Shown: piece by piece, positions 15,701 to 33,435 of the stretch | Layout of the letters: every line of letters starts with the position of its first letter | How positions within the stretch are numbered: the stretch's first letter is position 1 | Virus record (IMG/VR): IMGVR_UViG_3300010155_000008 | Span: 1 to 54,055 of that record | DNA from: a virus | DNA length: 54,055 nucleotides | Reading direction: 5' to 3' (one strand) | Position numbers and translations under genes: made by a program | The notes under the pieces: model-generated | Database searches by the model: none | Seen by the model: only the letters and a program-made list of their open reading frames with translations | What the model was told of the DNA's origin: nothing

Positions 15701-18700
15701 ATATTGATTTACTTACTGATCCAGGTGAATTTTTAAAGTTAGTTCTTGAAAATGAAAAAACTTTTGAAAGACTTGATGAATTTAGGAATGAATTACATTC
15801 AGAAATTGTAGATAGAGAAATAAATAAAGTAGCTTTAGATCAATTGTTAAATGCATTAGCAAATAATGCTCCTCCACTTTATATGGATAAAAATCAAGTT
15901 ATTGATATATTAGATAATAAAAAAGTTCCAGACTTTTTTACAGGTCATAAACAGGAAATTTATAATATTGGTAGTGAACCATATAGACAGGGAAAAGAAC
16001 TTATAGATAACTATATAACAACAGCAAATATACTAACTGCTAATATAGATCCTATTTCAGGAGTAGAAATGACTCCTGAAATGAAGAAATCTGTTGAAGA
16101 AGTTCAAAAGGTATTTAAAGATTCTAAAGATATAGGAAGTTTTAAAGGTATGTATCTTAAAGATGGTGATGTATATTCTAGAGTTTCTAATGTAATGTCA
16201 AAACTTTTTACAGATGAAGGTTATAATAGATTAAATCAAGTTATCAAAACTAAAGATGAAGCTTTTGTAAATTCTGAAGATGTTTTTGAGTTTAATCAAG
16301 AAAATATAAATTTGTTTATTAAAGAACTTAAACTTGATGTAGATTCAGGAAGATATGGGGAAACTGATGGAGGTATAACTGAAACAACTTTATCTAATTT
16401 AAAATTAGAACTTGAATCATTATTAAAGGGTGAGGTTTTAAACTCTTATCAAAAAGAAATTGCTGAATTAGAAAGTGGTAAAACTAAATACGAAGGTTCA
16501 CTTGTTGCTTTAGAAAATATAAGAATTATAGATAAAGAAATAGAAACTTTAAAATCTAATAAATATAATAAAGAAGAAATTACTAATGATATTTTAACTG
16601 ATGTAGTATATAAGGTCATGCCTATTATTACTTATGAAGGAGGAAGAGTTAGAGGTATAACTGCAGATGATATGGTCAGAGATTTCTTTGATCCTCAATC
16701 TGAACTCAGATATGATAACTATAAAGATAAAATTAGTGAAGAAGCATTTATTGCTTTATTTGGAGAAAGCGGACACTTAACTAAATTAAAAGAAAGAGTA
16801 GCATCAGGTGATATTTATATTTTTGCTAAAAATTTAGAAATAACTGATAATCAATTATTTAATAAAGAAGGAACTAAACTGAATAATGTTGGAGGTGCAA
16901 TTGATTTAATAATTGTAGATAAAACTGGTAAAAAATATATTGTTGATTTAAAAACAGGAAAACCAAGTAAATGGGCAACGTTTTTAATACCTGGTGATGA
17001 TAACTTTAATTATAAAAAGTATTTTGAAAACAGCATGCAACAAAGAGCCTATTCAAATTTATTTTATAATAAATCTAATGGTAAAGATATTGAAACTTTA
17101 TTATTACCTATATCTATTATAGAAGATACAGATGGTTATATTACAGAAGTTAAAAGTATTCCAGATAAAGATTTTAAAGGTCAAAAAACTTTTGATAATC
17201 TTGTTGATGGTCATATGTTTATAAAAACAGATAATAATGCTAGAATTCAAATAGGTAAGAATAAGGTTAAGGTAACTGATATTGATAAATATATACCAAG
17301 ACAAAGTATTGAAAAAGAAATTTCTGAAGAAAAGAAATTAAGTTCTAAAGAAGTTGTGGTAATAGAACAAAGAAAAAAGGATATAATACTAAAAATAAAG
17401 GCTTTAAAAAGAAAAGCTAATGTAGATACAGAAGCTATAGATGAATTAGAAGATGAATTAGAAGATGTTAAAAAGATCTTAAAACCTAATATTGCAAAAA
17501 AAACTCCAGAAGAAGATGAGGATAAAGAGTTTTATATTGATTTAAGAAAAAGGAAAAGAGCTGCTCAAGAAAATATAATTGAAACTTTAGAAGGAGTTAA
17601 AGAAAAAATAGGAGTAGAAACAGATTATGTAAATAATAAAGGAGTATCTATTAAAATCAAAAAAGGTTTTAATTTACCTAATTCAAAGATAACACTGGAA
17701 GAAGCTAAACAGACAGCTATTGTTAGTATTAATTTGAGAATAGAACAACTTTATAGATATGATATACTAAATCATGAAAGAAAAGATTTAGTTAAAGATA
17801 CTATAGATAATATAACAGGTAGAGTTTTTAATTCTGAAATTGGAAAAATATTTGATAAAAGAATAGATGATTGGGGAAATGAAGGAGCTTTACAAACAAT
17901 TATGATTGATTCTGTATATGTAACTGATGAAGGAAACTATGGAATTTTAGCAAGAAATTTAAGACGAGATAAATTATATGATATGATAGTTACTCCTGAA
18001 GGAGATGTTATATCCCATAATAATCAAGGTAAAATAGGAGAAGTGAAAAATCCTAAAGTTAAGATTGATGATTTTATAAAGTTTGAGAAAAGTGATTTTG
18101 CTAGAAAGAAAACTGATGAGGATAGAGCTAAAGAAGAAGCTTCTAAGAAATCTGGTAAAGAAACTAGAGATATAGACAAAGCTTCTGATATTAAAATTAT
18201 AGATGAATTTAGTGCTGTAACAACAGGTTTTATAAATGGAAAATTTGTACCAAGAACTTTAGAAGAAGGTCTTTTACACATAGATAAATTCTTAGAAAAA
18301 ACTTTTGGGTGGTCAAATGTTAAAACTACTCATAAGATAAAAACTATTAAAGATAAAATTTCTGAAAGTACAGAGGATGTGTTTACTATTACAGCTGATG
18401 GTACAACATTTATAGTAGATCAAGCAGCAGTTGGATTTGCAACTACTCCTGCAGGTAAGACTAGTACTTTTATTATTACATTACTTGATATAGTAAATGC
18501 TAAAGAAAATGCAGAAGAAAAAGCTCCTGTTACTAAATCTAAAGGTAAAATTATTCAATCAATTGAACCTACTATTGAAACAATAGGTAATATAACTTTT
18601 GGTACTGCAGGTCAAGTAGGAGAAAACAAAAATCAAGATGGTGTTTATATAGATACAGAAAATGGATTATATATTTTAGCAGATGGTATGGGAGGAATGG

Positions 18701-19920
18701 GTCGAGTAGCAAGTCAATCTCCTGAACAAGCTTCTTCTGATGTAATTAATATGTTAAAAGGTACACCAGTAAAAACTGGAACTGAATTATTATATGAAGA
18801 ATTTCAGAAAAATCCAGAGATGACTGCAGAAGAAGCTATGGATTTTCTAGGTATGGATGAAGACACTCCAACTGCTTGGATAGCTAAAGATAATCTAAGT
18901 TTTTTATTAGCTGCTTTTAAAGGAGTAGACTTTACTAAAACATCTGATGATAAAGGTTATAAGGCAACAACTACAGGTGCAGTCTCAGCAGTAGCAAAAA
19001 GAGTAGCTCCAAATAAATATAAAATAGAAAAGGTAGGGGATACTGTATTTTTTGTAGTAAATAAAAATGGTAAAGTAATTCAGTCTCATGGTTTATCTAC
19101 AAGTGCTAGTGTTGATGAAGCATATATGTTTAGTATAAAAGGTGGCAAGCCTCAAATGAATTCACCTAAAGTAGATAAGTTTACAATAGAATTAAAAGAT
19201 GGACAAACATTAGTTCTTGCTACAGATTTTATTGAAACAGAAAAAGCTATGGATGATTTTATCAAAACTGATTTTGGTAAAAATATAGATTTTGAAAAGT
19301 TTCAAAAAGAAAATAAAGAAGATGATTCTACTTTTATAGCTATTAGAGAAGAATCTTTAAAACCTGGAGAAGGACTCGATATTGAAGAATCAAGTTTAAC
19401 AGACTTAGTGAATGATATCAATAATGAAAATAAGAATGATACATCTATAATGTATGATACATTAAATGAATTATATATTTCACAAAAAATTACTCAAGAA
19501 AAATATGATGAATTAAAAACTTTATTAGATGCAAAAGCTAATGCACTTTTAGAAACAACTGTAATAATAAAGTCAGGTGATCTTTATACTTTTAAGGAGG
19601 CATTGGATTCTAAAAATATGCAAGTAGGTGAACAAGTTAGAGTACAAAAACTAGATGGTTCTAAAAAAGCTATTATTGTAAAAAAAGTAGGAAGAGGAAA
19701 TTATAAATCGGTATCTTTAACAGTTAAAGAATTTGAATCAAAAATTGATTTTGGTGAAATCCTTCCTAAAGAGGGAACAGGAAAAATTGAACTTGAAAAA
19801 ACTGGAGATATTCTTTTGGATTTTTTAAATGATAAAAAAGCTCAATTAGATTTAGATAAATCTAAAAAAGATTATCTAGATGAAACAGAGGATAATGATA
19901 TTTTTAATAATTGTAAGTAA
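12778..19920 (+). CDS. Polyvalent cargo protein with PD-(D/E)XK and PP2C domains
   Basis: A 2380-residue multi-domain protein. Residues about 150-650 resemble the helical region of large crAss-like virion/cargo proteins (Asn/Ala-rich segments around YLTNQITFGNIT). Around residues 1360-1400 a PD-(D/E)XK nuclease-type core is visible: GGAIDLIIVD with D1376, then YIVDLKTG with D1390 and K1392. From about residue 1942 a PP2C-type Ser/Thr phosphatase begins: ENKNQDGVY (D1954), LADGMGGMG (D1969-G1970), LVLATDF and a closing EDDSTFIAI, so the metal-binding acids of the family are present. Long coiled, Lys/Glu-rich linkers join the parts. By family knowledge such proteins are packaged or delivered to act on the host early; that is inference here. 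The stop TAA shares one base with the next ATG. Confidence 0.82.
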   Translation: MAEEVNNTGQPLSEYTNLETKLSTPENTQPVSNINSIGPGFGVNNKLDIPGPSIMNNIVGYPDNLPGGQAIGDTRNSLKEFIATESQGISDAAGKNSYGKMFNYDAGPDSNNFYDRYAAYGDDKFAEIGFHPFRDNEANFNANTTMWNDWSRMLTHSFPVLLKRGFIDGPKSLVKMIGGDFTGADLQDAAEYERAAAIGMSNKEGGITGVSAFMNNAFMNFGYTAGIITEAIVEEVGLSFLTGATSGATGGIQAMRTTKIIEDIGKGLGKIKTGAKAVKEIIPKFSTPTTARTFWESSRGKKLSSIGRTLNPLENTVDVLRDIRKSTKAGEYLDGLALLSKTSGSFYRDVRNINMAISESRLEAGMVENKIFHKLYDDHYDKVGKIPDSNEQYAMRQQAKKGSLETFYANAGIIYLTNQITFGNITNPKGGLNNFLKQTRKEIYEVGAKSGEKQFGTLGKVIFDNTKKAFVFEKNNLMNLAKSWWKQPGYATAKKTLGYFKANVSEGIQENLQEAIARANENHYIEAYKQQGPSASLYAKGVNKRSYQVQSGILGSTHMDDYWKELGKEFSAQGFETFMSGFMMGTFSKPLNNAIPFLSTQKARIFDKAAFEKWKKTKLEVTKGIVDNLNDINIDQLINSRLMNLGTQEKVSEIQKKGTKKEALDAEVDAFVSTMALMRRTGTAGVFIEKLNSMQELTDLELADAVKSLSVENVPKYRKRITNSIAKLKSIETKFKEAEDNLENPVDIQKISAEEMKTPEGQALIRLHNAWNKSVENFVYLNTAFEDTTKRMSSIYNNYLQSTSLATVDYGAAKVLFKPQTISRQLGILEQELAIERQKEDIPQSEKSKNVKDKEKQIDALKEFQNAQALFYGFYQRNETPTINLAKKRLKEFDDIKDPTQEQIDGKLNQLLGDITDEKKQVEVNKALKDTHDKYIRSLAIENNATIFQSSLDEAFNQLVDYYKLEFESRAVAEHIDLLTDPGEFLKLVLENEKTFERLDEFRNELHSEIVDREINKVALDQLLNALANNAPPLYMDKNQVIDILDNKKVPDFFTGHKQEIYNIGSEPYRQGKELIDNYITTANILTANIDPISGVEMTPEMKKSVEEVQKVFKDSKDIGSFKGMYLKDGDVYSRVSNVMSKLFTDEGYNRLNQVIKTKDEAFVNSEDVFEFNQENINLFIKELKLDVDSGRYGETDGGITETTLSNLKLELESLLKGEVLNSYQKEIAELESGKTKYEGSLVALENIRIIDKEIETLKSNKYNKEEITNDILTDVVYKVMPIITYEGGRVRGITADDMVRDFFDPQSELRYDNYKDKISEEAFIALFGESGHLTKLKERVASGDIYIFAKNLEITDNQLFNKEGTKLNNVGGAIDLIIVDKTGKKYIVDLKTGKPSKWATFLIPGDDNFNYKKYFENSMQQRAYSNLFYNKSNGKDIETLLLPISIIEDTDGYITEVKSIPDKDFKGQKTFDNLVDGHMFIKTDNNARIQIGKNKVKVTDIDKYIPRQSIEKEISEEKKLSSKEVVVIEQRKKDIILKIKALKRKANVDTEAIDELEDELEDVKKILKPNIAKKTPEEDEDKEFYIDLRKRKRAAQENIIETLEGVKEKIGVETDYVNNKGVSIKIKKGFNLPNSKITLEEAKQTAIVSINLRIEQLYRYDILNHERKDLVKDTIDNITGRVFNSEIGKIFDKRIDDWGNEGALQTIMIDSVYVTDEGNYGILARNLRRDKLYDMIVTPEGDVISHNNQGKIGEVKNPKVKIDDFIKFEKSDFARKKTDEDRAKEEASKKSGKETRDIDKASDIKIIDEFSAVTTGFINGKFVPRTLEEGLLHIDKFLEKTFGWSNVKTTHKIKTIKDKISESTEDVFTITADGTTFIVDQAAVGFATTPAGKTSTFIITLLDIVNAKENAEEKAPVTKSKGKIIQSIEPTIETIGNITFGTAGQVGENKNQDGVYIDTENGLYILADGMGGMGRVASQSPEQASSDVINMLKGTPVKTGTELLYEEFQKNPEMTAEEAMDFLGMDEDTPTAWIAKDNLSFLLAAFKGVDFTKTSDDKGYKATTTGAVSAVAKRVAPNKYKIEKVGDTVFFVVNKNGKVIQSHGLSTSASVDEAYMFSIKGGKPQMNSPKVDKFTIELKDGQTLVLATDFIETEKAMDDFIKTDFGKNIDFEKFQKENKEDDSTFIAIREESLKPGEGLDIEESSLTDLVNDINNENKNDTSIMYDTLNELYISQKITQEKYDELKTLLDAKANALLETTVIIKSGDLYTFKEALDSKNMQVGEQVRVQKLDGSKKAIIVKKVGRGNYKSVSLTVKEFESKIDFGEILPKEGTGKIELEKTGDILLDFLNDKKAQLDLDKSKKDYLDETEDNDIFNNCK

Positions 19921-22900
19921 TGATAAAATGTGCATTAAATAAAGAAGAACTTGAATATGTTTATGGATTAACTAAACAATCTATACAAGCAAAATTAAAT
20001 GCTAATAATCCTTTTAATGTAGATTCTTATATGAAGTATCTGTATGAAAGAATTCAAAAAGTTTCAGATAAAGATAGAGCTGCTCAATTTTTAGCATTTA
20101 CCCCAGCTATTATTGAATCTGTAGTTTTAAATAATTTTATTGAAAATATAGATCAAATTGAAGGATATGATAAAATATCTATTTTAAAAGTAAAATGGGC
20201 TGATCCACAAACTGCTATTAAAAATGTTGTAAATACATTAGATCAAACTAAAACAAATTTAATAATTGCTAGACTTATTAGAGAACAAGCAAAAGGTATT
20301 ATACCTGATAAAAATGAAAGTAAGTTTGATTATAATGTTGTATTTAGATATAAAGCTCTTAATATTTTATCAACTACATTACCTGCATTTAAACCAGGAG
20401 CAACTAAGTTTGAAAAAGAAGTTCCTGATGTACAGAGAAGAAATATAAATGATACCATTACTGCTATTGCTAATACAATTTCTTTAGAAGATACTGTATT
20501 AAAACATCCAAATTATCAAGGTGTTAATATTAAATTAAAAGCTGTTAATCTTAGTAAGTTTGTAGATGGTACTTATAGTGAAAAAAAACTTGATGGAACT
20601 ACTCAATCAGAGATTGCTAGATCTTTAGATATACAAAATCCTTTAACTAAAGGAAAACCTAAAGCAGGTATTATTCAAGTTCAAGATAGAGTTATTGTTT
20701 TAGTTACTGATGAAAAAGGAAATCCTTTGTCATTTGATTCAAGTAATAATATTGTTGCTGAAGAATCTTCTGATAGTACTTATGTTTATCAAATGATGAG
20801 AAGTATTAGGAAAGACGGATCTGGTTATAGTATTAGAGATATTTATAATTTAGAAAATAAAGTTTTAAGTTCTAGTGAGATTGCTACTATAAGGTCTGAA
20901 GAATCAAATGTAAATTATAAAGAAGCTTTGCAACAAGTAAACTCAGAATTTAAAGAATATTATACTTTAAAAAATGCAGCTTTAAAAGAAGATTTAGTGT
21001 TAGATTTTATAGGAATGACTGATGGTATCAGTATAGATAAAACTACAAAAAAAACTCCTTTAAATGTATTAATTGATAATAAAATAATTACAGATAAAAC
21101 TTTAGAAACTATAAGAACTCTTACAGTGCCTGAAAATGGAATAGCTGCAGGTAGAGCTACAATTGTTATAGAAGGAGATCTTTATCAACTTGATAGATCT
21201 AGAATGTCAGAGGATTTGGCAATTCAAATTCAAGAAGTTTTATTTTCAGAAGACTTTTCTATTAAAGAAAAAACTGATTTTTATGAACAGTTTATACCTA
21301 ATAAATATATTACGAATTATTCAAAAAGACATGATATAGTTAGAGAACCTGTAACAAATGAACTTTTTATAAAAGTCTATGATAAAGTTCAAAATAAAAA
21401 ATATCCAAGAAATCTTCTATTTGAAATAAGTATAAATTCTGATGGTATAGTTTTTGAAAATGGTCAAAAAGTATCAGAATCAAAAAAAGTAAAATTAAAA
21501 AAAGATTTTAAAGATGCCTTAACTAATACTTATCCAGATGGAAACTCTATATTTATACATTATAGTGAAGATCATCTTCAAACTCCCTATTCTTTAGATT
21601 TATATGAAAATGGTGAATTAAAAAGGACTGTTAATTATTATGACTTTATTAAAAGTCATGATCCTTTAGTTTTTATTGTTTCATCAGAAACAGGCTATTT
21701 TAATAAACAAATTTTATTTCAAAGGTCTACTGATACACAACTAAATAATATTACAGAAGCTTTACCAATAAATAAAAGATTTAGTCAATTAAAAGAAGAT
21801 GAGTATTTAGGAAATTTATTATTAAAAGAAACTCCTGATGGTAAATCTGTATTAAAAGATGAGTATAAAGGAAAGTTTATATATTCTACAGTTGGTTTGT
21901 TTTCCAATGAAGTTTTTCAAGATACAGATGTAGTACATACAAATGATATTACTGTAGATTTAATATCATCTATTCAAATGGGAAATGGTGAAGTCTTTAG
22001 AGAAAGAAATGAAGATGAAAGCATTGAAGCTTATATTTTTGCTTTTTCTAAAGCTGGTTATAAGACTACTCATTTAGATCCGGCAGTGACCAATAGAATA
22101 AAACAACTTACTGAAAGTGGAGTAACTGTAGTCACTGAAACTTCAGATAGAATAAAAGATGTTGACTTAGTTGTATTAGGAGATAGAAACAATCCCGGTG
22201 TAGAATCTTATAGTTTAAAAGATAATTTTTTTAAAAAAGAACTTGAAGCTTCAGTTAAATATATTCAGAATCTTCAAAAGGAACCTGCTTCTATTAGTAT
22301 TAGTCCTTATGTAAATAAAAAAATAGTAATAGACAAAGCTACTAGTGTAGATACTGATAAACCAAATGATCCTAATGAAGATTGGGAATTATTGAGAAAT
22401 GGAAAACTTAATTCAGATAAGCTATCTGCTGCAGACATAAAAAGGGCAGATACCTTTTGGACTAAGAGTGCTTTTGGTAAATCATTACAAAAAAGTATAT
22501 CTTTAAACAAAGCAGTTAATTTAGTAAATTCTGATGCATATGCTAATTTTGTAATCTCTGGTGCTACTTTAATGAATCCAGACATTAAAGGAACTATTAA
22601 TATTGATAACAGTAAAGGTTCAATGGTAGATTTATATCATGAATCATTTCATGCATTTACTCAATTGTATTTAACACCTCAACAAAAAATAGATCTATAT
22701 GAAGAGGTTTTAGATTATACGGATACAAAAGGAAATAAACCTTATGAAGGCAAAAGTTATTTAGAAATAGAAGAGATTCTTGCAGAAGACTTTAGAAGTT
22801 ACATGAAGAAGAATGTAGCTAAACCAAATTCTCCTATGAGAAATAGCATCTTTAGAAAAATAGTACAGATGCTTCAAAAACTCTTGGGTAAGATTATACC

Positions 22901-25900
22901 TAATTTGAAAAATGTTCAGTTGGATATAATGTCTGTACCTGCAGTAAAAGAATTATATGAAAACTTAAATTTTGGGAGTGATAAATATTTTAATCAATAT
23001 GAAGCTTCAGTAGATAACGCAATATTTTTTGAATTAGAAAGAGGTATTAAGTATGTAGAGAAAATTAATAATGAGAGTTATAAAAGAACTGCTTTAAGTA
23101 AAACTGATTCTGATCTTATATCAAGCTCTATAGATTCAATTATATCAGATCTTATAGATGCTCGTTATGACAAAGAGATGGAAAGATATCCTAATCTAAA
23201 AGGCACGCAGTTAGAAAGTTATATTTCAAAAATAAAAGGTTTAAGTTTAACAGCATTGCTTGAACCAAAACACAGAGCACTAACATATAAAAAAGTTTTA
23301 GATAAACTAAAAGAAAGATTAACTGTACTTAATAAAGAATACAATAAGTCAGTTGGTAAAGTTGGAATAAGTAAAATAAATACATTTAAACTATTAAAAG
23401 ATAATGCAGTTGCTACTTTAAAAACAGAAAGCGGTATACATAAATATGTATTGTTAAAATCTCAAATAGATAGCTTTAAAGATTTTGATTCATACTTTAA
23501 AAGAGGTACACGAGTTAAAGGTGAAGAATGGAAAGGAATTAAAATAGTAGGAGATTACTTTACGCATTCAATTATTAAAGATAATAGTAGAGAAAAAAAG
23601 CCTGAAGTTCCTGCACAAATTATTATAGTATCAAGAATTGAAGATGCTAAAGTTCAATATGATAATTATGTAAAAGGTAAAGCAAAAGAATATACTGGAA
23701 TTAAGTTAAATGCAAAGGCAGTAGATTCTGATTTAACATATGACCAAGAAAATCTTTTAGATAACATTAGAATTTTAGAAAATGCTATTGATCAATTTGG
23801 AGATCCCAATTACATAATAAATGATATTAAACCAACAGGTGTTATTGCTTATCATTTATTACATTCAGATTTTGAAATAAATAAGATTAAATATTTTGCA
23901 GAAGAAGAAGTTCCACAAGAAAATAGTGAGACTCCATTTGAAGAAGATTTTCAAAAATCTTTATATGATTTAGCAGAAAAAGAAGTAATTTATATTTTAA
24001 AAAGTTTACATAAGATTGAAAATGGAAAAACTAAAAATAATAAGTTAGGCTTTAAAGAACGTGCTGATTTTAGAAAAGTTTGGAATACATTATTTAAAGT
24101 TATAGGTGGTGTACAATCAAGACAGGAAATGTTTGACATTATAAAAGAAGAGGCAAAAAACTTTCCTGAATTAGAACAATTATGGAAATTTAAATTACCG
24201 TCACCACGCAATATTCAAAGCACTTATGCTATGGATATTAGCTCATCTTTTTGGCATACATTTTCTAAACCTTCTGTAAAAGCTTGGCAACTTACAACTA
24301 ATATTTCTGAGGTTTATATAGCCGGAGATTTGATGGATACATCTTATGATTTTATTGTAAATGAATCTACTATAGAATTAAATAAAATACTTTCAACTTT
24401 TGAGAATCGTTTTAAAATTTCAAAAAATAAATACATGCTTAGGTTTAAAGATCAACCAGCAGTATTAGATTTACCAAGATTTCATAATGATTTTATAGAT
24501 AGTTCAAGCAAAGTAGTTGATAAGTTAGGTTTTTTAAGAGTTCTAGGTTTTCAATTAGATAATACAAAACAATTAGAAAAAGCTCTTACAACAAAACAAG
24601 CTTCAGCTGATATAAATAATTTAGTTCTTTTGATTAAAGATTTATATAATATTACAACTAAACCTATTAATGAAAGAAGTGTAAAAGAAAAGAAATTATT
24701 AAAAAGATTTGTTACCAATCCAATAGGTACTCTTAGAAATAATGATTTTATGAAAAATTTTATTTCTGAATTACCTAGTTTTAAAAATATTGAAACTTTA
24801 AGAAATGATTCAATTGTAAGAAATTTAGGAAAGATACAAGCTAATTTTGGATTTGATACTCCAGGAGATACAATAGTATTACCTGATGGAAATAATGCAT
24901 ATACTGTTGCTAATCATAGTGCAGTAACTTCAATAGTATTGGGTATTAATGCTCTTGATGATTTAGAAGAAGCGTATGTTCTAAATGAACATTTATCTTA
25001 TTTAAATCCATATGAAGATAATGGAGGTATGCCTTATAATCCTTTAGCTCTTAGAAATAAAGTTTTGAATACAATGTTTCCTAATGGAACTAAAAGAGAT
25101 TTTACAAAAGAAATGGAGTTTGTATTATTAACTGGAACAGAACTTAGAACAACTACAATTTATGAAGATTTATATAATAGTAAAGCAGTTGCAGAAAGTT
25201 CTGGGATTAATACAGGTGATCTTACACCAATTGATAAATTATTTCAGGAATATAATATGTTACTTAGTAAAGGTGTAGGTGAGTTTATTAGACATTCTGA
25301 GAAAAAAAGTGCTTTTGGAATTAAGCTTGATAAAAGAAAAGAATTTAATGGAATAAAAACTGGGACAAATAAAAATTTATGGATAGATATTGATTTATTT
25401 AAATCTCAAGAAGGAGATGGGATTGCTTTAGAAGCATTTATATTAGATTATATTGCCTCAGAGTTTGATAGAATTCAATATTTTGAACAGAATGAGGGTG
25501 TTTTAGAAACTACTACAGGTTATAATAGAACATTATCTAATGGAAGAAAAGCAGGTTTATCATTTGTTGCAATGGATTCTTTGATAAGTGAACCTATTAA
25601 AGAATTTTTATATAAAGAAGCAAAAAAGCCTAATGTAACTGATATTATTGATGTACTTAAAAATAGTAAACATTATCAGTTTTTAAGAGATGATGTGCTA
25701 GAATATTTTGAACAAAAAACTCTTTTTATAAAAAATTCTTTAGGATCTAATTTAAGATTAAATCCAGAATTTGCAAAGTATGATGTAGATACATTAGCAA
25801 AAGCTTATACATATAATGATTTTATTAATAAGTTAGAAATGTCTAATCTTATTAATGGGGACGTAGCTCAATTTGAAAATTTAACAAAAAGAAGTCCTGG

Positions 25901-28900
25901 TTCTAGTTCTAATGGTGATGGGTTTCTTTCTGATATAAATGCTCAAAAATTTATTAATGGAATTTTTCAAGGTAAAAACGTAACAACTTATGCAAATACT
26001 TTAGGGATAGAGGATTTTAATTTTGATGGAACTTTAAATACAGGAGTTATAAAAGATCCTAAAAGAAAATCTATTTATCTTAAAGAAATGCAAGAGGCTT
26101 GGACTGAAAATTATTTAAAAGCGGGTTTAACAAAATCTGAAACTTCAAGTAGAGTTACTAGAGATTCTAAAGCTTACAAAAAAATGTTAGAAGCTGATGG
26201 AGCTGCATATTTAACTATTGATGCATATAGAGTTCTTAGAAAACTTGGTAATAAATGGAGTCTAGAACAAGAAAATTTATATAAAGATATAGTAGCCGGG
26301 AATGATGTAAGTGTAGAAAAGGTTTATAAATTTTTTCCAGTATATAAACTTCATAATTATGGTCCATTGATGAATAGTAAAATAGCTACTACATCTATGT
26401 TTAAATTTGCTGTTGCACCTATTATACCTTCAATTGCTAAACCAGGTACAGAATTATATAAACTCCATACAAAAATGTTAAAATCTGGAATACAGATGGT
26501 TACATTTAAATCAGGATCTAAAGTTGCATCTCTTACTAGTAAGTCTAATACAGAGGCAGATGATATTTTTGAAAAATTAGATGATTTAGAAAAATTGAAT
26601 AGAACTGATAAGTATGTAGAAGAAGATGATAAAAAAGCTCCTATTAAAAATAATAAGATTCATTTAAAATATTTAAAAGATGTAACTTCAGTAGCTGATA
26701 AATTACACAAAACTATAACAGTTGGAACACAATCTAGAGTGGTAGTTGAAAGTCAACTATATTCAATGGGTGATTTAATTAATCCTAAAAATAAAAAGAT
26801 TTCAATTCAATATAAAAAGGCTGTTAAAAATTTAACTGATGTTTTAGAAACAGAATTACTTGATGAAATAGGTTTTACTATTAATGAAAAGGGTACTTAT
26901 ATACCTTATAGTAAAGGAAGTCTTGAAAAACTAACAAGAATGATTAGAACAGAATTAGATTCTAAAGGATCACCTGTTCAATTACAAAATATAATTGATG
27001 TTTCAGTTAATGGTTCTTTGAAAATTGATTTTTCAATACATCCTGAAGCACAAGTGGTGGAACAAATTTTAGTTAATAGAATTTCTAAATCTATTTCTGC
27101 TCAAAAAACAAAAGGTGAATCAGATGTTCAAGTCCCAAATACTTTTTATAATGGTGTATGGAATTCTGAATTGGAACAAGATTTAGCTATTATTAAAAAT
27201 GAATTAGAAATTCAAAAATATTTAGGTACTAATAATTTACCTTTTTACAGAAGAGGTGAAATAATTAATAAAGAGACCGGGGAAAGAGCATCAACACATT
27301 TAGCCAAAGTAGCTATTCCACTCAATGGAGATTTTGTAAACTTATTAAACTTAGAGGATCCTGATAATCCTGGTAATATAATTGGGACAAGAAAAAGATT
27401 AAATGAGCTTTTAAAAGATACAGATTGGATGAAAGAGCATGGTCAAAAGGTTACAATTACAGGACCAAGGATACCAACAGATGATACTAATTTAATTGAA
27501 GGATTTGAAGTATGGCATTTTATAGATGCCTCTGCTGGTAGTACAGCAGTTGTTCCTACAGAAATTGTAGCTAAAGCAGGATCTGATTTTGATGTTGATA
27601 AGTTATTTTTTTCATTTCCTAATATAAATGAAGATGGTAGTTTACCTAAAACAGTTTTAAATTTTGATTCTCAAATTAAAAAATTGAGAAAAGAAAAAAA
27701 GAGTATTAAAAAATTAATCAATCAACAAAAAAGATTTAATCAAAATGAGTTAATAAGAACAGGTGTTGAAATATTAAAACTTCCAGAAACTTATTCAGCT
27801 TTAACAAAACCTGCTAATACTTATTTATTTAAAGATCAAGCAAAATTAGAATCTAAATCTGATATAAAGGGACATAGTTCTTTAACAGAAAATCCTACTA
27901 AATTTTTTGAAACTGAGTATAATAATTTACAACATGAATTATTACTAGGTGGTAATATACCAGTGAGTATTTTTGCAAAATATAATAAGCAACATATTTT
28001 ATATAAATCTATTGGAGCTAAAATGCCTAAAAAGTACTTTGATAATGATTATTTAATTAGAGAAATGAAAATGAGATTCCCACATAATCTAACTCCAGAA
28101 GGTAATATTTCAATATCTAGTATAACTAATGTAGACAATGTAAATATAGGAGAAATATTTTCTCATGGTCTTCAGGGTGTATTAGATAGAGGTAATGATT
28201 CTTTTCCTGTAAGAGCCGGTATTAGTAAAGAATCTCTTCCTGTAGTGCTAAGGATGATTGAAAGTGGAGTATCATTACCTCAAGTTATAAAATTTGTTCA
28301 GCAACCTTTAATTGAAGATTATTTAAAAAAACTTGCAGAATCTAAAGGAATTCTAAGTCAACTAAAAGATGCTAATATTAATAAAAGAAGAATAGTAGAT
28401 CAGTTACTTGTACAATATATAGATTCTAATGCTATTAGTTTTTATAATAAAAAATCTTTTGAAGATGCCAAAGAGGCAATGAAAAGAAATCCAAATAAAA
28501 TGGTTTCAATTACTGCAGGAGATGATATAAATTCAGTAGAAGTTTTGAGTAAAGATTTTAATAAATTTATAAAAGAAAATAATATAGAAAGTAATCAAAT
28601 AAAATGGATACAATTTGATAATGATTTAAGTCCTATTTTTGCAAAATATAGTTTTAAGAATCCAAACCTTCTTTATAAAACATATCATTTAGGAGAATAT
28701 TTTTGGAATAAGACTTATGCTCAAAATATTCCTACAGGTGAAGAATTAAGAACTCCTCAAGCTGATTTAGAACAAGTTGCTCTTTTATTTGAATTTTTAA
28801 ATGTAGAAAGACAATCACAAGGTATGGAAAACTTTGAGATGAACTTTAATCCAGATACAGGACTTCTTTTAAATATTGAGGGAGTTGTAGAAAGAAAAAA

Positions 28901-31900
28901 TTTTATTAAAAGTTTATATGCTGATAGTAGAATTGACAAAGAGACTCTTGATAACTACTTAAATGATTCTATAGTTTCTTCTATGTATAAAACTAAAATC
29001 TTTATAGATATTGTAGGTCCACAGTTTGCATTGAGATTAAATAAAGGTTTATCTGAAATGCTTGGAATAACTTATTTTAATAATAGACATAATATTAATT
29101 TAAGGTATGAAGGTAATAGAATAGAAGCTAGAGAAAAATATGCTAATGCTTTTAATAATGGTGTAATAGATTATATTTATCAAAATATTTTATCCAATTA
29201 TGTTGATAATAAAACAGGATTACCTGTAACATTACCTGAAGAAATTAGAAAAAGAAAAGTAAATAAAAAGAAACTTCTTGGTGACAGTGTTGTAGTTTTT
29301 AATAATAAAACTGTAAATATAGATCTTGATCAAATTAAAACTGATTATAAAAAAGGATTATTTTTTACAGGAAATGATGTTTCAGGAAAAGATACTTTTG
29401 ATAATAGCCCTTTTCCTACAGAAGAATCATATATAAGATATATAATTGAAAGAGAATATTTTAGAGAGGTATATAAAGAACATAAAGATAAGTCTGGTTT
29501 TGAAGAAAGAATTTCTAAAAGAGCTTTAGCAACTTCATTTAATGTTGGTTATATAAAAGGTGATGCCGGATTTGGATCAATTAAATATTCATATACTAAA
29601 GATATTATGGAGTTTATAGAAGATCCTAGTAATAAAACAATAGTTCAAAACTTTCCTGTTTTACAGCATTTAAAACCATCTTTCTATATGGCTTCAAAAG
29701 GATATCAACTTTTAGAGTTAGATAATAAAACATTAATTGATAATGATATAGCTTTAGATTATTCTAAACAATTAAAACAACTAGGAGATCCTATAATGAG
29801 AATTGTTTCTGATAATCCAATTAAAGATGCTATGATTAGTGATTTATTTAAAAACTTTTCACTAATGGCTATATATCAGCAAGGTACGGGTAAATCAGGT
29901 TTAAATTTTATCAAAGCCTTAAATCCAAATACTTTTGTTGATGTATTAAAAATACCAACAATACAATTTCAAAAATCTGTTTTTAAAGATCTTTCTAAAA
30001 TGCCATTATCAGATTTTAAAAAAGAGATGTCAAAAAGAAATACTCTATTTAATTTTATTGCTGATTCTATATTAGATACTTCTACATATAAACAATTATT
30101 GACAAGTCCTGGAAACTTTTTAGGTTCAATAGAAGCAGTAAAATTAAAGGATTTAAATAAGTTATCTAATCTTACTGATGAAGAATTATATAGAAGATAT
30201 AAGGATGCTATAGTGAATAAAGTTTTTGATAATGCAATGAGTGATAATAATCAAGGAACTGCAATTTTAAATGAAATAGAAATTGAATTATTAAGACGAA
30301 ATCTTCCTTTAATTCCTACTCAATCAACTTCTAAGGTTAAACCTACAATAAATTTATCAAAAGAGTGGAAAGGAGATTTGGAATCTAGACCTGTATATAC
30401 AGCAGAAGGAGTTAATACTATGAGAACTTCAGATGCTAAATCTGAAGAACATTTTGGAAATCCATTTAGTGAAGCTGGGTATGGAGATACAGTAAAAGTA
30501 AATAGTATTGGTGCTGCAGTTGAAGCTTATAAAGCTTGGCTTAATGAAGATAATTTAGCTACAACTAAAGACTTTGGTTTAGATCCAAAAGAATTTTTAA
30601 AAAAAATTATACTTTCTGCAGGAGGTAAACCAACTAGAAAAGGCATGTTTGCAATAGATGGTCAGTATTATTATATACCAGACATATCCATAATGTCTAA
30701 ACCTTATGGGTATGATGCATTTATTAATATTGGAAATGATGAAATATATTTAGGTTCTAGTAAAAAAGGATATACTGATTTTGTGTCAAATGATGAATAT
30801 CCTTTAGCTGATTTAAACTATGAACAAAGAGAATGGATACTTGATCAAATTAATCAAGGTAAATTAGATGGTGCTATTTTATTATATGCAGGTAAATTAG
30901 CAGCAAGAGGTGAAGGTATGCATCCTACAGCATTAGCAGAAGTAGTAGAAGAATTAAGATTAAATCCAAATACTAAAGTTAAAGTAGTAAATGAAGTATA
31001 TGATAAAATTGATGAAGATAGTTATTCAATAAGTTTGAATTACAAAGGACGTGATTATAATATGGTTATATCAAGAGATGGAGAAATAGTAGATCCTTCT
31101 TATTATAATCCGGAAACATTGATGGATGTAGATGTTAAGTCTAATATTTTTAAATTTACAAAAGAAGATATTAAAAATATTTTCTTAGAAATAGAACAAC
31201 CTCCTCAACCACCTGGTAAGGTTAAAGAAGGAGTATCTGAAGTATTTGAAATAAAACCTGAACTAGCTAATATAGGTACACAAGAACAATATTCTGAATG
31301 GATAAATTACTTATTAACTAAAGGAAAGCTTAAAGGAACTACTGTAAAAGATATTTTATATCATGGTACATATGAAGACTTTGAAGAATTTTCAAAAGAA
31401 AAAAGAGGAAATATAACAGGTTTAGGATCTTTTAAAGATAAAAAAACAGGAGAGGAGGTTGACTCTGATACAACTCATGCTTTTTTCTTTACTGATAATA
31501 AAATTAATGCAATAAGTTATTCTTTTAAAGGTAGAGAAGGTCGTATTAGGAAAGTTAAGGATGCTCTTGGAGATATTCTTATGGGAGAAGGAAAGAATGA
31601 AGCAGTAAAATTTATTAAGTCTATTCCTTATTATAATAAGCTTATTGAAGCTGCTAAAAATAAAGGTAAGTCTCAGGAGGAAATTAAAGATTTACTTAGA
31701 AAAGAATTAAAAAAAGTAAATATTGTTTGGAATAAAGGAAGTGCTCAAAGTTTTGGAAATTCACTACATAATCACGTAGCTGCTAAAAATGAATTTGAAA
31801 GTTTCTTAAAAAATATATCAAGATTTAAGAATAATGATTTATCTATTAAAAATAGATTTGGAGATTTTAATACTTATAATGCAAGTTATGATAATTATAA

Positions 31901-32564
31901 AATTTTTACTAACAATGAAAGATATGAGTTTGTTGATGTTAGTAAAGGACCAGGAGGTACAAGATTTTTTGCAGATGAAGTAGATAATAAAGTAATAGAA
32001 AAATTCTTTAAAGATGCACTTAAAGCAATAGAACAAGGTGAAATAGAGGCAAAAAAGAAGATGAAAAAACAAGGGTATGTAGAAAAAACATTGCCTGTTT
32101 TACTTAATTTAAAGAATCCTTTAATTCATGATTATGAAGAATCTCTTTTTACTGATAAATATAAAGGAGGTAAAAATCCTACAGAATATGTTGCAGGAAG
32201 ACAAGTTAAAAAAGCATTAAAAGAAAATAGAGATGGTGTAATATATGAAAATATAGTTGATCCTTATTTGTCTACAACTTATGGAGTGTTTGAAACAGAA
32301 AATATATATACACTTGGAGGTAAAGAAGACATGCAAGGTTTTAAAAACTTTGTATCTACTCAACAAACTATTAGTAAAAAAGGTCAATTAAATTTATTTG
32401 ATACTATAGATCCTGTATTAGAAAACTTTTATAATAATTTAAGTAAAGAACAATTAGATAATCCAAATTTACCTTCAATTACTCTTGCTCAAGAATTTTA
32501 TACTGATGCTCCACATGCATATAAAAATATAAATGAGTATATTGAATCATTAAAATGTTTATAA
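19920..32564 (+). CDS. Giant RNA polymerase polyprotein with protease and ADP-ribosyltransferase-like domains
   Basis: A 4214-residue protein. A zincin metallopeptidase motif HESFH (H907-H911) is followed by EEILAEDF near 950, a plausible third ligand. The RNA polymerase core spans roughly residues 2100-2850: FKSGSKV near 2196, RIPTDD, IVAKAGSDFDVDKLFF with D2556, D2558 and D2560 as the metal-binding DxDxD of the beta-prime-like barrel. This matches the single-subunit RNAP of crAss-like phages, which is carried in the virion and transcribes early genes. Residues about 3490-3680 (HFGNPFSEAGYG, then LLYAGKL...MHPTALAEVV) resemble DUF4326. Residues about 3810-4110 (DILYHGT, AFFFTD, DGVIYENIVD) resemble the ADP-ribosyltransferase fold of polyvalent proteins. 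GQLNLFD lies near the C-terminus. The start overlaps the previous stop. The protease might cut this or neighbouring proteins; that is inference. Confidence 0.87.
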   Translation: MIKCALNKEELEYVYGLTKQSIQAKLNANNPFNVDSYMKYLYERIQKVSDKDRAAQFLAFTPAIIESVVLNNFIENIDQIEGYDKISILKVKWADPQTAIKNVVNTLDQTKTNLIIARLIREQAKGIIPDKNESKFDYNVVFRYKALNILSTTLPAFKPGATKFEKEVPDVQRRNINDTITAIANTISLEDTVLKHPNYQGVNIKLKAVNLSKFVDGTYSEKKLDGTTQSEIARSLDIQNPLTKGKPKAGIIQVQDRVIVLVTDEKGNPLSFDSSNNIVAEESSDSTYVYQMMRSIRKDGSGYSIRDIYNLENKVLSSSEIATIRSEESNVNYKEALQQVNSEFKEYYTLKNAALKEDLVLDFIGMTDGISIDKTTKKTPLNVLIDNKIITDKTLETIRTLTVPENGIAAGRATIVIEGDLYQLDRSRMSEDLAIQIQEVLFSEDFSIKEKTDFYEQFIPNKYITNYSKRHDIVREPVTNELFIKVYDKVQNKKYPRNLLFEISINSDGIVFENGQKVSESKKVKLKKDFKDALTNTYPDGNSIFIHYSEDHLQTPYSLDLYENGELKRTVNYYDFIKSHDPLVFIVSSETGYFNKQILFQRSTDTQLNNITEALPINKRFSQLKEDEYLGNLLLKETPDGKSVLKDEYKGKFIYSTVGLFSNEVFQDTDVVHTNDITVDLISSIQMGNGEVFRERNEDESIEAYIFAFSKAGYKTTHLDPAVTNRIKQLTESGVTVVTETSDRIKDVDLVVLGDRNNPGVESYSLKDNFFKKELEASVKYIQNLQKEPASISISPYVNKKIVIDKATSVDTDKPNDPNEDWELLRNGKLNSDKLSAADIKRADTFWTKSAFGKSLQKSISLNKAVNLVNSDAYANFVISGATLMNPDIKGTINIDNSKGSMVDLYHESFHAFTQLYLTPQQKIDLYEEVLDYTDTKGNKPYEGKSYLEIEEILAEDFRSYMKKNVAKPNSPMRNSIFRKIVQMLQKLLGKIIPNLKNVQLDIMSVPAVKELYENLNFGSDKYFNQYEASVDNAIFFELERGIKYVEKINNESYKRTALSKTDSDLISSSIDSIISDLIDARYDKEMERYPNLKGTQLESYISKIKGLSLTALLEPKHRALTYKKVLDKLKERLTVLNKEYNKSVGKVGISKINTFKLLKDNAVATLKTESGIHKYVLLKSQIDSFKDFDSYFKRGTRVKGEEWKGIKIVGDYFTHSIIKDNSREKKPEVPAQIIIVSRIEDAKVQYDNYVKGKAKEYTGIKLNAKAVDSDLTYDQENLLDNIRILENAIDQFGDPNYIINDIKPTGVIAYHLLHSDFEINKIKYFAEEEVPQENSETPFEEDFQKSLYDLAEKEVIYILKSLHKIENGKTKNNKLGFKERADFRKVWNTLFKVIGGVQSRQEMFDIIKEEAKNFPELEQLWKFKLPSPRNIQSTYAMDISSSFWHTFSKPSVKAWQLTTNISEVYIAGDLMDTSYDFIVNESTIELNKILSTFENRFKISKNKYMLRFKDQPAVLDLPRFHNDFIDSSSKVVDKLGFLRVLGFQLDNTKQLEKALTTKQASADINNLVLLIKDLYNITTKPINERSVKEKKLLKRFVTNPIGTLRNNDFMKNFISELPSFKNIETLRNDSIVRNLGKIQANFGFDTPGDTIVLPDGNNAYTVANHSAVTSIVLGINALDDLEEAYVLNEHLSYLNPYEDNGGMPYNPLALRNKVLNTMFPNGTKRDFTKEMEFVLLTGTELRTTTIYEDLYNSKAVAESSGINTGDLTPIDKLFQEYNMLLSKGVGEFIRHSEKKSAFGIKLDKRKEFNGIKTGTNKNLWIDIDLFKSQEGDGIALEAFILDYIASEFDRIQYFEQNEGVLETTTGYNRTLSNGRKAGLSFVAMDSLISEPIKEFLYKEAKKPNVTDIIDVLKNSKHYQFLRDDVLEYFEQKTLFIKNSLGSNLRLNPEFAKYDVDTLAKAYTYNDFINKLEMSNLINGDVAQFENLTKRSPGSSSNGDGFLSDINAQKFINGIFQGKNVTTYANTLGIEDFNFDGTLNTGVIKDPKRKSIYLKEMQEAWTENYLKAGLTKSETSSRVTRDSKAYKKMLEADGAAYLTIDAYRVLRKLGNKWSLEQENLYKDIVAGNDVSVEKVYKFFPVYKLHNYGPLMNSKIATTSMFKFAVAPIIPSIAKPGTELYKLHTKMLKSGIQMVTFKSGSKVASLTSKSNTEADDIFEKLDDLEKLNRTDKYVEEDDKKAPIKNNKIHLKYLKDVTSVADKLHKTITVGTQSRVVVESQLYSMGDLINPKNKKISIQYKKAVKNLTDVLETELLDEIGFTINEKGTYIPYSKGSLEKLTRMIRTELDSKGSPVQLQNIIDVSVNGSLKIDFSIHPEAQVVEQILVNRISKSISAQKTKGESDVQVPNTFYNGVWNSELEQDLAIIKNELEIQKYLGTNNLPFYRRGEIINKETGERASTHLAKVAIPLNGDFVNLLNLEDPDNPGNIIGTRKRLNELLKDTDWMKEHGQKVTITGPRIPTDDTNLIEGFEVWHFIDASAGSTAVVPTEIVAKAGSDFDVDKLFFSFPNINEDGSLPKTVLNFDSQIKKLRKEKKSIKKLINQQKRFNQNELIRTGVEILKLPETYSALTKPANTYLFKDQAKLESKSDIKGHSSLTENPTKFFETEYNNLQHELLLGGNIPVSIFAKYNKQHILYKSIGAKMPKKYFDNDYLIREMKMRFPHNLTPEGNISISSITNVDNVNIGEIFSHGLQGVLDRGNDSFPVRAGISKESLPVVLRMIESGVSLPQVIKFVQQPLIEDYLKKLAESKGILSQLKDANINKRRIVDQLLVQYIDSNAISFYNKKSFEDAKEAMKRNPNKMVSITAGDDINSVEVLSKDFNKFIKENNIESNQIKWIQFDNDLSPIFAKYSFKNPNLLYKTYHLGEYFWNKTYAQNIPTGEELRTPQADLEQVALLFEFLNVERQSQGMENFEMNFNPDTGLLLNIEGVVERKNFIKSLYADSRIDKETLDNYLNDSIVSSMYKTKIFIDIVGPQFALRLNKGLSEMLGITYFNNRHNINLRYEGNRIEAREKYANAFNNGVIDYIYQNILSNYVDNKTGLPVTLPEEIRKRKVNKKKLLGDSVVVFNNKTVNIDLDQIKTDYKKGLFFTGNDVSGKDTFDNSPFPTEESYIRYIIEREYFREVYKEHKDKSGFEERISKRALATSFNVGYIKGDAGFGSIKYSYTKDIMEFIEDPSNKTIVQNFPVLQHLKPSFYMASKGYQLLELDNKTLIDNDIALDYSKQLKQLGDPIMRIVSDNPIKDAMISDLFKNFSLMAIYQQGTGKSGLNFIKALNPNTFVDVLKIPTIQFQKSVFKDLSKMPLSDFKKEMSKRNTLFNFIADSILDTSTYKQLLTSPGNFLGSIEAVKLKDLNKLSNLTDEELYRRYKDAIVNKVFDNAMSDNNQGTAILNEIEIELLRRNLPLIPTQSTSKVKPTINLSKEWKGDLESRPVYTAEGVNTMRTSDAKSEEHFGNPFSEAGYGDTVKVNSIGAAVEAYKAWLNEDNLATTKDFGLDPKEFLKKIILSAGGKPTRKGMFAIDGQYYYIPDISIMSKPYGYDAFINIGNDEIYLGSSKKGYTDFVSNDEYPLADLNYEQREWILDQINQGKLDGAILLYAGKLAARGEGMHPTALAEVVEELRLNPNTKVKVVNEVYDKIDEDSYSISLNYKGRDYNMVISRDGEIVDPSYYNPETLMDVDVKSNIFKFTKEDIKNIFLEIEQPPQPPGKVKEGVSEVFEIKPELANIGTQEQYSEWINYLLTKGKLKGTTVKDILYHGTYEDFEEFSKEKRGNITGLGSFKDKKTGEEVDSDTTHAFFFTDNKINAISYSFKGREGRIRKVKDALGDILMGEGKNEAVKFIKSIPYYNKLIEAAKNKGKSQEEIKDLLRKELKKVNIVWNKGSAQSFGNSLHNHVAAKNEFESFLKNISRFKNNDLSIKNRFGDFNTYNASYDNYKIFTNNERYEFVDVSKGPGGTRFFADEVDNKVIEKFFKDALKAIEQGEIEAKKKMKKQGYVEKTLPVLLNLKNPLIHDYEESLFTDKYKGGKNPTEYVAGRQVKKALKENRDGVIYENIVDPYLSTTYGVFETENIYTLGGKEDMQGFKNFVSTQQTISKKGQLNLFDTIDPVLENFYNNLSKEQLDNPNLPSITLAQEFYTDAPHAYKNINEYIESLKCL

Positions 32565-32565
32565 G

Positions 32566-33435
32566 ATGGCTTGTATAAATAAATCAAATTCAAAATATAA
32601 AGATCTTCAAGAAAGATATGGAGATTTTTTAGCTGAATCTTTTGTTAGAGGTAACATATTAAATAAAAAGTTAGAGGTATCTGAAGATTTTTATATACCT
32701 ACACAAGGAGAGGTTACTAAATATTTTAGAAGTATTAGAAAACCTTTAAAAATAAAAGAACTTGAAGATGCTTTAAGACTTAATCCTGCTTTAGATATAG
32801 CTGCTATACGTACAATATTACAAGGAATTATAACAAAACATAAAGATACCTTTTATGTTATTCAAGGTTCTAATAATAGAGGTCCTATTGAACAACAACT
32901 AACTCTTAAAGAGATATATATTCCTAATTTAAATATACTTGAAACACTGTCTGAAAAATATCCTGATATATTTGAATTAAATACAGATAAACCTAATGTA
33001 ACAAGAGTAACAATAACTCCTGCAACAAACGTAGAATATATACCTGAAATACAATCAAGTTTAAATGCTTATACTAATTTATTAAATGAAAATGAAGGTA
33101 TTCAACCTGATCAATTTATTGTAGAAGATCATTTATGGCAAAGAACCGGAAATCATTTATATGCTTTAATTGATACTCAAACAGGAGATCCATTTTTAAG
33201 AAATATGAGTATGCTTTCTGGTGCAGAAGTAGTACCACAATCAACACCTCTAGATAAAGAAAGTGCTGATGCAGAAATAATGGATATCAGAACTAATTTT
33301 GATACAGAATATTGGCAAATTGATTTTGGCTTAAGAGGATATAACTTAGAACAAATTATTAATAATCTAGAAGCTGCAGAAACTCAACAAGAATTTGATG
33401 AGCAATTAGCAACTTTTAAAAAAATTACATGTTAA
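32566..33435 (+). CDS. Small protein with Cys-Asn-Lys N-terminal motif
   Basis: A 289-residue protein of unknown function. The N-terminus (MACINKSNSKYKDL, then LAESFVRG) is similar to that of the next gene and to a short motif that I recognise at the start of many large Bacteroidota-phage proteins. The remainder is charged and mixed alpha/beta with no catalytic motif seen. The C-terminal part is Glu/Gln-rich and helical. It starts one base after the stop of the RNA polymerase gene and its TAA directly abuts the next ATG, so it is translationally coupled to both. A role as part of the co-injected protein set is inferred from context. Being short between giant neighbours, it could be a segment that is fused to a neighbour in relatives. 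Confidence 0.7.
   Translation: MACINKSNSKYKDLQERYGDFLAESFVRGNILNKKLEVSEDFYIPTQGEVTKYFRSIRKPLKIKELEDALRLNPALDIAAIRTILQGIITKHKDTFYVIQGSNNRGPIEQQLTLKEIYIPNLNILETLSEKYPDIFELNTDKPNVTRVTITPATNVEYIPEIQSSLNAYTNLLNENEGIQPDQFIVEDHLWQRTGNHLYALIDTQTGDPFLRNMSMLSGAEVVPQSTPLDKESADAEIMDIRTNFDTEYWQIDFGLRGYNLEQIINNLEAAETQQEFDEQLATFKKITC

What the first reader, a model, noticed from the sequence alone, without database searches (positions are those of the whole stretch)
19920..32564. A single 4214-residue frame joins protease, RNA polymerase, DUF4326-like and ADP-ribosyltransferase-like domains
HESFH, the DFDVD polymerase signature, HFGNPF...MHPTALAEVV and YHGT...DGVIYENI are all in one uninterrupted frame. crAss-like RNA polymerases are known to be large and packaged, but this set of extra domains on the same chain suggests one injected polyprotein that carries transcription plus host-modifying activities, possibly self-cut by its zincin.
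Basis: partly seen in the sequence, partly recalled or inferred. Interest (0 to 1): 0.75.

Follow-up and report, generated by a model that had tools for sequence, protein, structure and literature searches.

The report
Cysteine-tipped chain of injected phage proteins
[quoted passage not shown] this pattern holds in nearly every relative examined and I found no report of it.

Summary
In detail: window 19920-32564 is one open 4214-aa frame. The RNA polymerase is certain (profile match to the phi14:2 enzyme, E 2e-33). The ADP-ribosyltransferase is well supported. The DUF4326-like domain is probable. The HExxH metallopeptidase is conserved by motif across the clade, but its fold was not confirmed. 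Injected polymerases carrying a zincin and an ART are already described as "polyvalent proteins".

The surprise lies at the ends. This protein and its three chain neighbours (8022 aa) contain six cysteines, one at each of the six internal gene-junction ends and none elsewhere (chance about 1e-17). Across 19 reference phages, 28/28 junctions have a cysteine on both sides, and the two outer ends never do. In IMG/VR, 101/104 junctions after the polymerase follow the rule, against 1/51 control pairs. When parts are fused the cysteine pair is absent. In 7 phages with everything in one 5.0-5.6-kaa protein, neither end has a cysteine and 6 of the 7 proteins have none at all. The rule holds when the partner gene lies on the other strand (17/17).

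Best explanation: a disulfide-linked linear chain of injected proteins. The pattern is shown. The bond is inferred.

The parts
12778..19920 (+). Chain member 1 (2380 aa): PD-(D/E)XK-like stretch (aa 1291-1398) and PP2C-like motifs (ADGMGG, aa ~1969); its only Cys is the second-last residue (Cys2379, nt 19912-19914)
   Evidence: PDDEXK_1 E 6e-4, just under cut-off; PP2C by motif only
19912..19914 (+). Junction cysteine at C-end of member 1 (..NNCK*)
19920..32564 (+). Chain member 2 (4214 aa): the finding; zincin-like, RNA polymerase, DUF4326-like and ART domains; only Cys are Cys4 and Cys4213
19929..19931 (+). Junction cysteine Cys4 at N-end of member 2 (MIKCAL)
22389..23162 (+). Zincin-like metallopeptidase domain; HESFH at 22638-22652, invariant EE at 22770-22775
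   Evidence: two relatives hit Tox-MPTase4, best E 3e-4; fold not confirmed
25617..30272 (+). RNA polymerase core; catalytic DFDVD at 27585-27599
   Evidence: hhalign to Steigviridae RNAPs incl. phi14:2 (PDB 6vr4), probability 99.9, E 2.2e-33
30318..31166 (+). DUF4326-like domain (EHFGNPF ... MHPTALAEVVEEL) with a ~90-residue insertion
   Evidence: profile of 7 loci; 4 more found; compact relatives weakly match PF14216, E 0.015 and 0.027
31293..32369 (+). ADP-ribosyltransferase (ART-PolyVal) domain, YHGT ... DGVIYENI
   Evidence: PF18760 E 1.2e-5 (below cut-off); aligned relatives L199 and L064 pass the cut-off (5e-10, 1.7e-18)
32556..32558 (+). Junction cysteine Cys4213 at C-end of member 2 (ESLKCL*)
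32566..33435 (+). Chain member 3 (289 aa), unknown function; only Cys are Cys3 (32572-32574) and the last residue Cys289 (33430-33432)
   Evidence: same layout in L187 (294 aa) and L188 (300 aa)
33436..36855 (+). Chain member 4 (1139 aa), last; only Cys is Cys4 (33445-33447), no Cys at its outer end; hydrophobic segment near C-end
   Evidence: C-terminal 260 aa match the last member of L004, E 2e-7

Best explanation
The ORF is the RNA-polymerase member of a set of giant proteins that a crAss-like phage packs into its virion and ejects into the cell ahead of or with its DNA. The members (here 2380, 4214, 289 and 1139 aa) are made as separate, practically cysteine-free polypeptides. Each carries one cysteine at every end that faces a chain neighbour and none at the two outer ends. 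In the assembled virion the C-terminal cysteine of one member forms a disulfide with the N-terminal cysteine of the next, giving one linear, ordered, about 8000-residue thread with one member of each kind. The thread can be pulled partly unfolded through the portal and tail and comes apart in the reducing cytoplasm. There the polymerase starts early transcription, and the ART, DUF4326-like, zincin-like, nuclease-like and phosphatase-like parts act on the host. Shown here: domain content, cysteine placement, its conservation, and its loss on fusion. Shown by others: packaging of the homologues and disulfides elsewhere in a crassvirus virion. Inferred: packaging of these particular proteins, the disulfide itself, its role in ejection, and the host targets.
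For: Window: 6 Cys in 8022 aa, one at each internal end, P about 1e-17. Nineteen reference phages (Steigviridae, Suoliviridae, Intestiviridae, Fipvunavirus, environmental): 28/28 junctions have Cys on both sides, 0/19 outer N-ends and 0/19 outer C-ends do; 0.0008 double-Cys junctions expected; control ORFs 6/237 and 8/237. IMG/VR: 101/104 RNAP-downstream junctions have both, outer end of the last member 1/95, control pairs 1/51, Cys frequency 0.0014 against 0.0100 in controls. Number of pairs tracks number of pieces: with everything fused (7 phages, 5005-5642 aa) neither end has a Cys and 6/7 have no Cys at all; member 1 fused to RNAP, Cys only at the C-end; last member fused, Cys only at the N-end; separate, both ends. 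Not a DNA-junction effect: with member 1 on the opposite strand its C-end Cys remains in 17/17 (crAss001). Split points differ: member 1 ends after the zincin in Steigviridae and before it in the window lineage. L188 has an extra 762-aa member with Cys only at its two ends, whose tail matches the window protein's own tail, E 4e-5. Nothing but the Cys is conserved at the ends, which fits a bond rather than a binding motif. crAss001 virions contain other disulfides, and gp47, gp49 and gp50 are virion proteins (PMC10172136). The N4 virion polymerase and its two neighbouring virion proteins have no Cys.
Against: No disulfide between cargo proteins has been observed. The crAss001 structure resolves little of the cargo, and its authors report no such bond. 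A cysteine alone does not fix the order: any tip could pair with any other unless docking holds neighbours together. Bacterial cytoplasm is reducing, so bonds would have to form late in assembly or after lysis. Intestiviridae and some others have several to 29 internal cysteines in the polymerase chain, so the cysteine-free rule is not universal although the end rule is. A few exceptions exist (L060, L071, L150 downstream; L049, L066 with none at either end). The phages are related, so counts are not independent. This virus has not been isolated.
Confidence: 0.7

Rival explanations
1. The terminal cysteines of neighbouring members meet but bind something other than each other: for example two junctions share a zinc ion or iron-sulfur centre, or the tips attach to a portal or scaffold protein during packaging.
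For: Any thiol chemistry would explain Cys conservation. Two copies of one junction would supply the four thiols a zinc site needs. Several crassviruses encode a thioredoxin near the block.
Against: No second metal ligand (His, Cys, Asp) is conserved next to the tips; flanks look random. The outer ends, which would also need a packaging tag, never carry the Cys. The pair disappears on fusion.
Confidence: 0.14
2. The cysteines are inherited relics of an ancestral split of one polyprotein, or of an intein or frameshift at the junctions, kept without present function.
For: Colinear domain order and frequent fusion or fission suggest one ancestral chain.
Against: Different split points and an extra member in L188 each carry their own pair. 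Surrounding residues are not conserved while the Cys is. A relic would not vanish exactly at each fusion while persisting through divergence to 20-25% identity.
Confidence: 0.05
3. One reading: one injected polyprotein that its own zincin cuts into separate polymerase and host-modifying enzymes.
For: HExxH and a downstream EE are invariant in 39 relatives; zincins are proposed to process polyvalent proteins (PMC5512222).
Against: Not tested. Both chain tips carry the conserved Cys, so a cut before ejection would detach parts from the chain. Some lineages lost HExxH. Compatible with the chain model if cutting happens after entry.
Confidence: 0.25
4. Chance, or a start or stop codon context artefact, on proteins that are cysteine-poor for other reasons.
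For: The proteins are strongly Cys-poor, like N4 ejection proteins.
Against: 28/28 against 0.0008 expected; control gene pairs 1/51; holds across opposite strands.
Confidence: 0.01

Closest known systems
crAss-like virion RNA polymerase (phi14:2 catalytic RNAP, PDB 6vr4; crAss001 gp50)
   Same: DxDxD catalytic motif in homologous core, profile E 2e-33; same position between a zincin-bearing member and a last member; homologues are virion proteins (PMC10172136)
   Different: Here the N-end includes the zincin-like domain and the C-end adds DUF4326-like and ART domains; about 4214 aa instead of about 2200-2400. The terminal cysteines are present in phi14:2 (Cys3, Cys2179) and crAss001 too; I found no comment on them in the papers I could read
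Polyvalent proteins of phages (Iyer et al. 2017, PMC5512222): N4-like RNAP + zincin MPTase + ART
   Same: Same logic: packaged or injected chain with polymerase, metallopeptidase and ART-PolyVal domain
   Different: The polymerase is the two-barrel crAss type, not N4/T7 type; a DUF4326-like domain is added; no terminal-cysteine rule was seen there, and N4 vRNAP has no Cys
Crassvirales 'RNAP-associated protein fused to zincin protease' (annotated in BK010471 gp45 and MH552500)
   Same: HExxH domain on the N-terminal side of the polymerase in the same gene block
   Different: There the zincin sits on the preceding protein; here on the polymerase chain itself, i.e. a different split point
Ejection proteins of N4, P22 and T7
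   Same: Large virion proteins expelled before or with DNA through a narrow tail, thought to pass unfolded
   Different: No end-to-end covalent linkage is described for them to my knowledge; I checked N4 only (no Cys)

Membership tests
crAss-like virion RNA polymerase | Homologous core with DxDxD catalytic motif | tested here: met
   (prob 99.9, E 2.2e-33, 828 columns, DFDVD aligned to DFDID)
crAss-like virion RNA polymerase | Packaged in the virion and active on early genes | not testable with these tools
   known for phi14:2 and crAss001 homologues (PMC7886860, PMC10172136); this virus is known only from metagenomes
Order Crassvirales | Conserved capsid, portal, TerL and IHF gene set | not tested
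   54-kb fragment; only the transcription block and part of the replication block were examined
Zincin metallopeptidase | HExxH plus downstream third ligand | tested here: met
   Y-H-E-x-x-H and E128-E129 invariant in 39 sequences
Zincin metallopeptidase | Zincin fold | tested here: inconclusive
   AF2 pLDDT 66 (motif helices about 90), no PDB match at E<=0.001; Tox-MPTase4 hit in 2 of 39 relatives, best E 3e-4
ART-PolyVal (PF18760) | Profile match and H...D signature | tested here: met
   window E 1.2e-5, below cut-off; aligned relatives L199 and L064 pass the cut-off; YHGT and DGV motifs kept; fold prediction of this region failed
DUF4326 (PF14216) | Profile match | tested here: inconclusive
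   no match for the window; relatives L067 and L088 match at E 0.015 and 0.027 as best hit; HFGN and C-terminal H conserved
Polyvalent protein | Several conflict-type domains on one injected chain | tested here: met
   domains as above; injection inferred from homologues
Disulfide-linked cargo chain (proposed) | Cys on both sides of every internal junction and on no outer end | tested here: met
Disulfide-linked cargo chain (proposed) | Covalent bond present in virions | not testable with these tools
   needs non-reducing gels or mass spectrometry

The most novel reading that the evidence does not exclude
crAss-like phages and their relatives thread their giant transcription and host-takeover proteins into the cell as one covalent, disulfide-linked string. 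The same function is met by peptide-bond fusion in some lineages and by a cysteine pair wherever the string is cut into separate genes. This would be a reversible protein-concatenation mechanism for ordered injection with no described counterpart that I know of.
Probability: 0.68. Interest if true: 0.95.

Novelty: new variant of a known kind. Interest (0 to 1): 0.87.

Why it matters
How a phage gets hundreds of kilodaltons of folded enzymes through a tail channel narrower than the enzymes, in the right order, is an open question for crAss-like phages, the most abundant viruses of the human gut. The cysteine rule gives a specific, cheaply testable answer for the whole group. It also predicts chain order and stoichiometry from sequence, flags mis-called gene starts (crAss002 gp33), and could suggest a redox-released way of delivering large proteins in series.

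Tried and rejected
Pfam and PHROG scans of the full proteins gave little. PDB sequence searches with the ORF and the RNAP profile: no hits. AlphaFold of the DUF4326+ART region without an alignment failed (pLDDT 34). The zincin model gave no Foldseek match. A single-sequence IMG/VR search with the zincin slice found nothing. BLASTP gave no support for the idea that members 3 and 4 arose by splitting the last member of L004: member 4 matches its C-terminal end, member 3 does not match. PP2C assignment in member 1 rests on motifs only. A DNA-level cause (translational coupling, junction RNA motif) was rejected because the rule survives when partners lie on opposite strands. N4 was checked as a control and has Cys-free ejection proteins, so Cys poverty is not crAss-specific but the tipped ends may be. 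The Drobysheva 2021 and Yutin 2018 papers were not held, so a mention of the cysteines there cannot be excluded; searches of the held library found none.

Full report
OBSERVATION. The window is a whole IMG/VR virus record of 54,055 bases, probably a fragment of a phage of about 100 kb (its 35%-identical relative L004 lies on a 111.7-kb contig). ORF 19920-32564 (+) runs 4214 residues from ATG to stop without interruption. It sits in a row of giant (+) genes of 2380, 4214, 289 and 1139 aa, with stop/start overlaps or gaps of a base or so. This row is followed by a replication block on the other strand.

DOMAINS. Polymerase: a three-sequence profile of the core matches a Steigviridae polymerase profile (crAss001 gp50, phi14:2 and others) with hhalign probability 99.9 and E 2.2e-33, DFDVD aligned to DFDID. 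The phi14:2 sequence is PDB 6vr4. Zincin-like domain: the segment around HESFH is found in over 100 related loci, always on the N-terminal side of the polymerase when on the same ORF (84 of 84). YHExxH and a downstream EE are invariant in 39 aligned sequences. Two of them hit the metallopeptidase toxin family Tox-MPTase4, best E 3e-4. A 39-sequence AlphaFold model was mediocre (pLDDT 66) and found no fold match, so the fold remains unproven. Nine listed relatives keep the domain but have lost HExxH. ART: PF18760 matches the window slice at E 1.2e-5, under the curated cut-off; aligned relatives L199 and L064 pass it. Other crassviruses carry clear ART-PolyVal domains elsewhere in the same protein set (cr10_1 last member 2e-17, cr271_1 member 1 1e-19). 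DUF4326-like: the window itself misses PF14216, but a profile of seven loci is coherent and the two most compact members hit PF14216 as their best, weak match. The proposed role of DUF4326 in ADP-ribose phosphate processing (PMC9503650) would pair naturally with an ART; that is inference. Neither the DUF4326-like nor the ART domain is in the 35%-identical relative L004, so they are lineage-specific additions behind the polymerase.

THE ENDS. Counting cysteines in the window block gave an unexpected result. Member 1 (2380 aa) has one Cys, at position -2. Member 2 (4214 aa) has two, at +4 and -2. Member 3 (289 aa) has two, at +3 and -1. Member 4 (1139 aa) has one, at +4. So 8022 residues hold six cysteines, one at each end that faces another member. 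The first N-end and last C-end have none. Placing six cysteines one per end by chance has a probability of about 1e-17.

GENERALITY. In phi14:2, members of 1797, 2180 and 1421 aa have Cys only at -1; +3 and -2; +3. In crAss001 the order gp47, gp50, gp49 shows -3; +5 and -9; +5, although gp47 is on the opposite strand. In 19 reference genomes of three Crassvirales families, Fipvunavirus and environmental relatives, all 28 junctions have a Cys on both sides, and no outer end does (the crAss002 polymerase start was moved to the downstream ATG that gives MSCTP). An automatic survey of 125 non-redundant IMG/VR polymerase loci gave 101 of 104 downstream junctions with both cysteines, 1 of 95 outer ends with one, and 1 of 51 control gene pairs with both. 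On the upstream side 38 have both, 37 have neither (polymerase ORF long, median 4158 aa, i.e. member 1 fused; upstream neighbour median 608 aa) and 12 have only the N-end Cys. In seven of those twelve the true partner was found on the opposite strand, and in all 17 such loci examined its C-end carries the Cys.

DOSE RESPONSE. The number of cysteine pairs follows the number of breaks in the chain. Fully fused proteins of 5005-5642 aa (seven phages) have no terminal Cys, and six have no cysteine at all. Member 1 fused to polymerase: Cys only at the C-end. Polymerase fused to last member: Cys only at the N-end. Three separate members: two pairs. Window: four members, three pairs; L187 keeps the same layout over the part held. 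L188 has a further 762-aa member with Cys only at residues 3 and 760; its tail matches the tail of the window's 4214-aa protein (E 4e-5), which has no internal Cys. The split points are not the same in all lineages: member 1 ends after the zincin domain in Steigviridae and before it in the window lineage. Apart from the initiator Met and the Cys, the end sequences show nothing obvious in common.

EXPLANATION. A cysteine pair appears wherever the peptide bond is missing and is absent where the peptide bond is present. The simplest reading is that the pair replaces the bond: the members are joined head to tail by disulfides in the virion. This gives a linear chain with defined ends and equal numbers of each member. 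Passage of partly unfolded cargo is already the published model for crAss001 (PMC10172136), whose virion contains other disulfides. Cysteine avoidance elsewhere would prevent wrong bonds while threading; the N4 virion polymerase and its two neighbouring virion proteins likewise have none. In the host cytoplasm reduction would free the enzymes. Steps shown: sequence pattern, conservation, dependence on gene breaks. Steps inferred: bond, timing, ejection as a string, host targets. A weakness is that cysteines alone do not impose order; docking of neighbouring members must be assumed. Confidence: pattern real and functional about 0.98; end-to-end disulfide about 0.7.

A multi-enzyme injected chain is supported. 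That combination is already a known theme (PMC5512222; the annotation in BK010471 and MH552500 of RNAP-associated protein fused to zincin). Self-cleavage is possible after entry but untested; cutting before ejection would break the chain.

NOVELTY. As a protein, it is a new variant of crAss-like virion polymerases with polyvalent additions. The cysteine-tipped chain was not found in the papers searched; two key papers could not be read.

Noticed in passing
window 18415-19377: Member 1 has PP2C-phosphatase-like motifs (NQDG, ADGMGG, TTTG, GDTVFF, EDDSTF) that no Pfam model recognised; a protein phosphatase on an injected phage chain would be unusual.
   Followed up: partly
L004 14197-22473; L021 21739-25356: Last chain members of some relatives carry one or two further HExxH segments and, in cr10_1, an ART-PolyVal domain, so the accessory enzymes move between chain positions.
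   Followed up: partly
L184, L166, L183, L161, L174, L182, L160, L167, L098: The zincin-like domain is retained but HExxH is lost in a group that includes several of the fully fused single-chain phages.
   Followed up: no
L023 14088-26825 (crAss002 gp33): Annotated start is probably 32 codons too far upstream; the in-frame ATG giving MSCTPSNP restores the junction cysteine.
   Followed up: yes
L007 12531-24121 (cr108_1): Polymerase gene is interrupted exactly inside the catalytic motif (..AKAGSD | ..MYDIDKMYLY..), as expected for an intron at the active-site codons.
   Followed up: no
L024 2588-5161 (p-crAssphage gp47); L023 3393-5066 (crAss002 gp30): An upstream, non-polymerase virion-region gene in Intestiviridae also has a single Cys near its C-end; its partner is not obvious.
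   Followed up: no
L007, L013, L014, L017, L024: Thioredoxin-like genes are annotated close to the transcription block in several crassviruses, which may matter for thiol chemistry.
   Followed up: no
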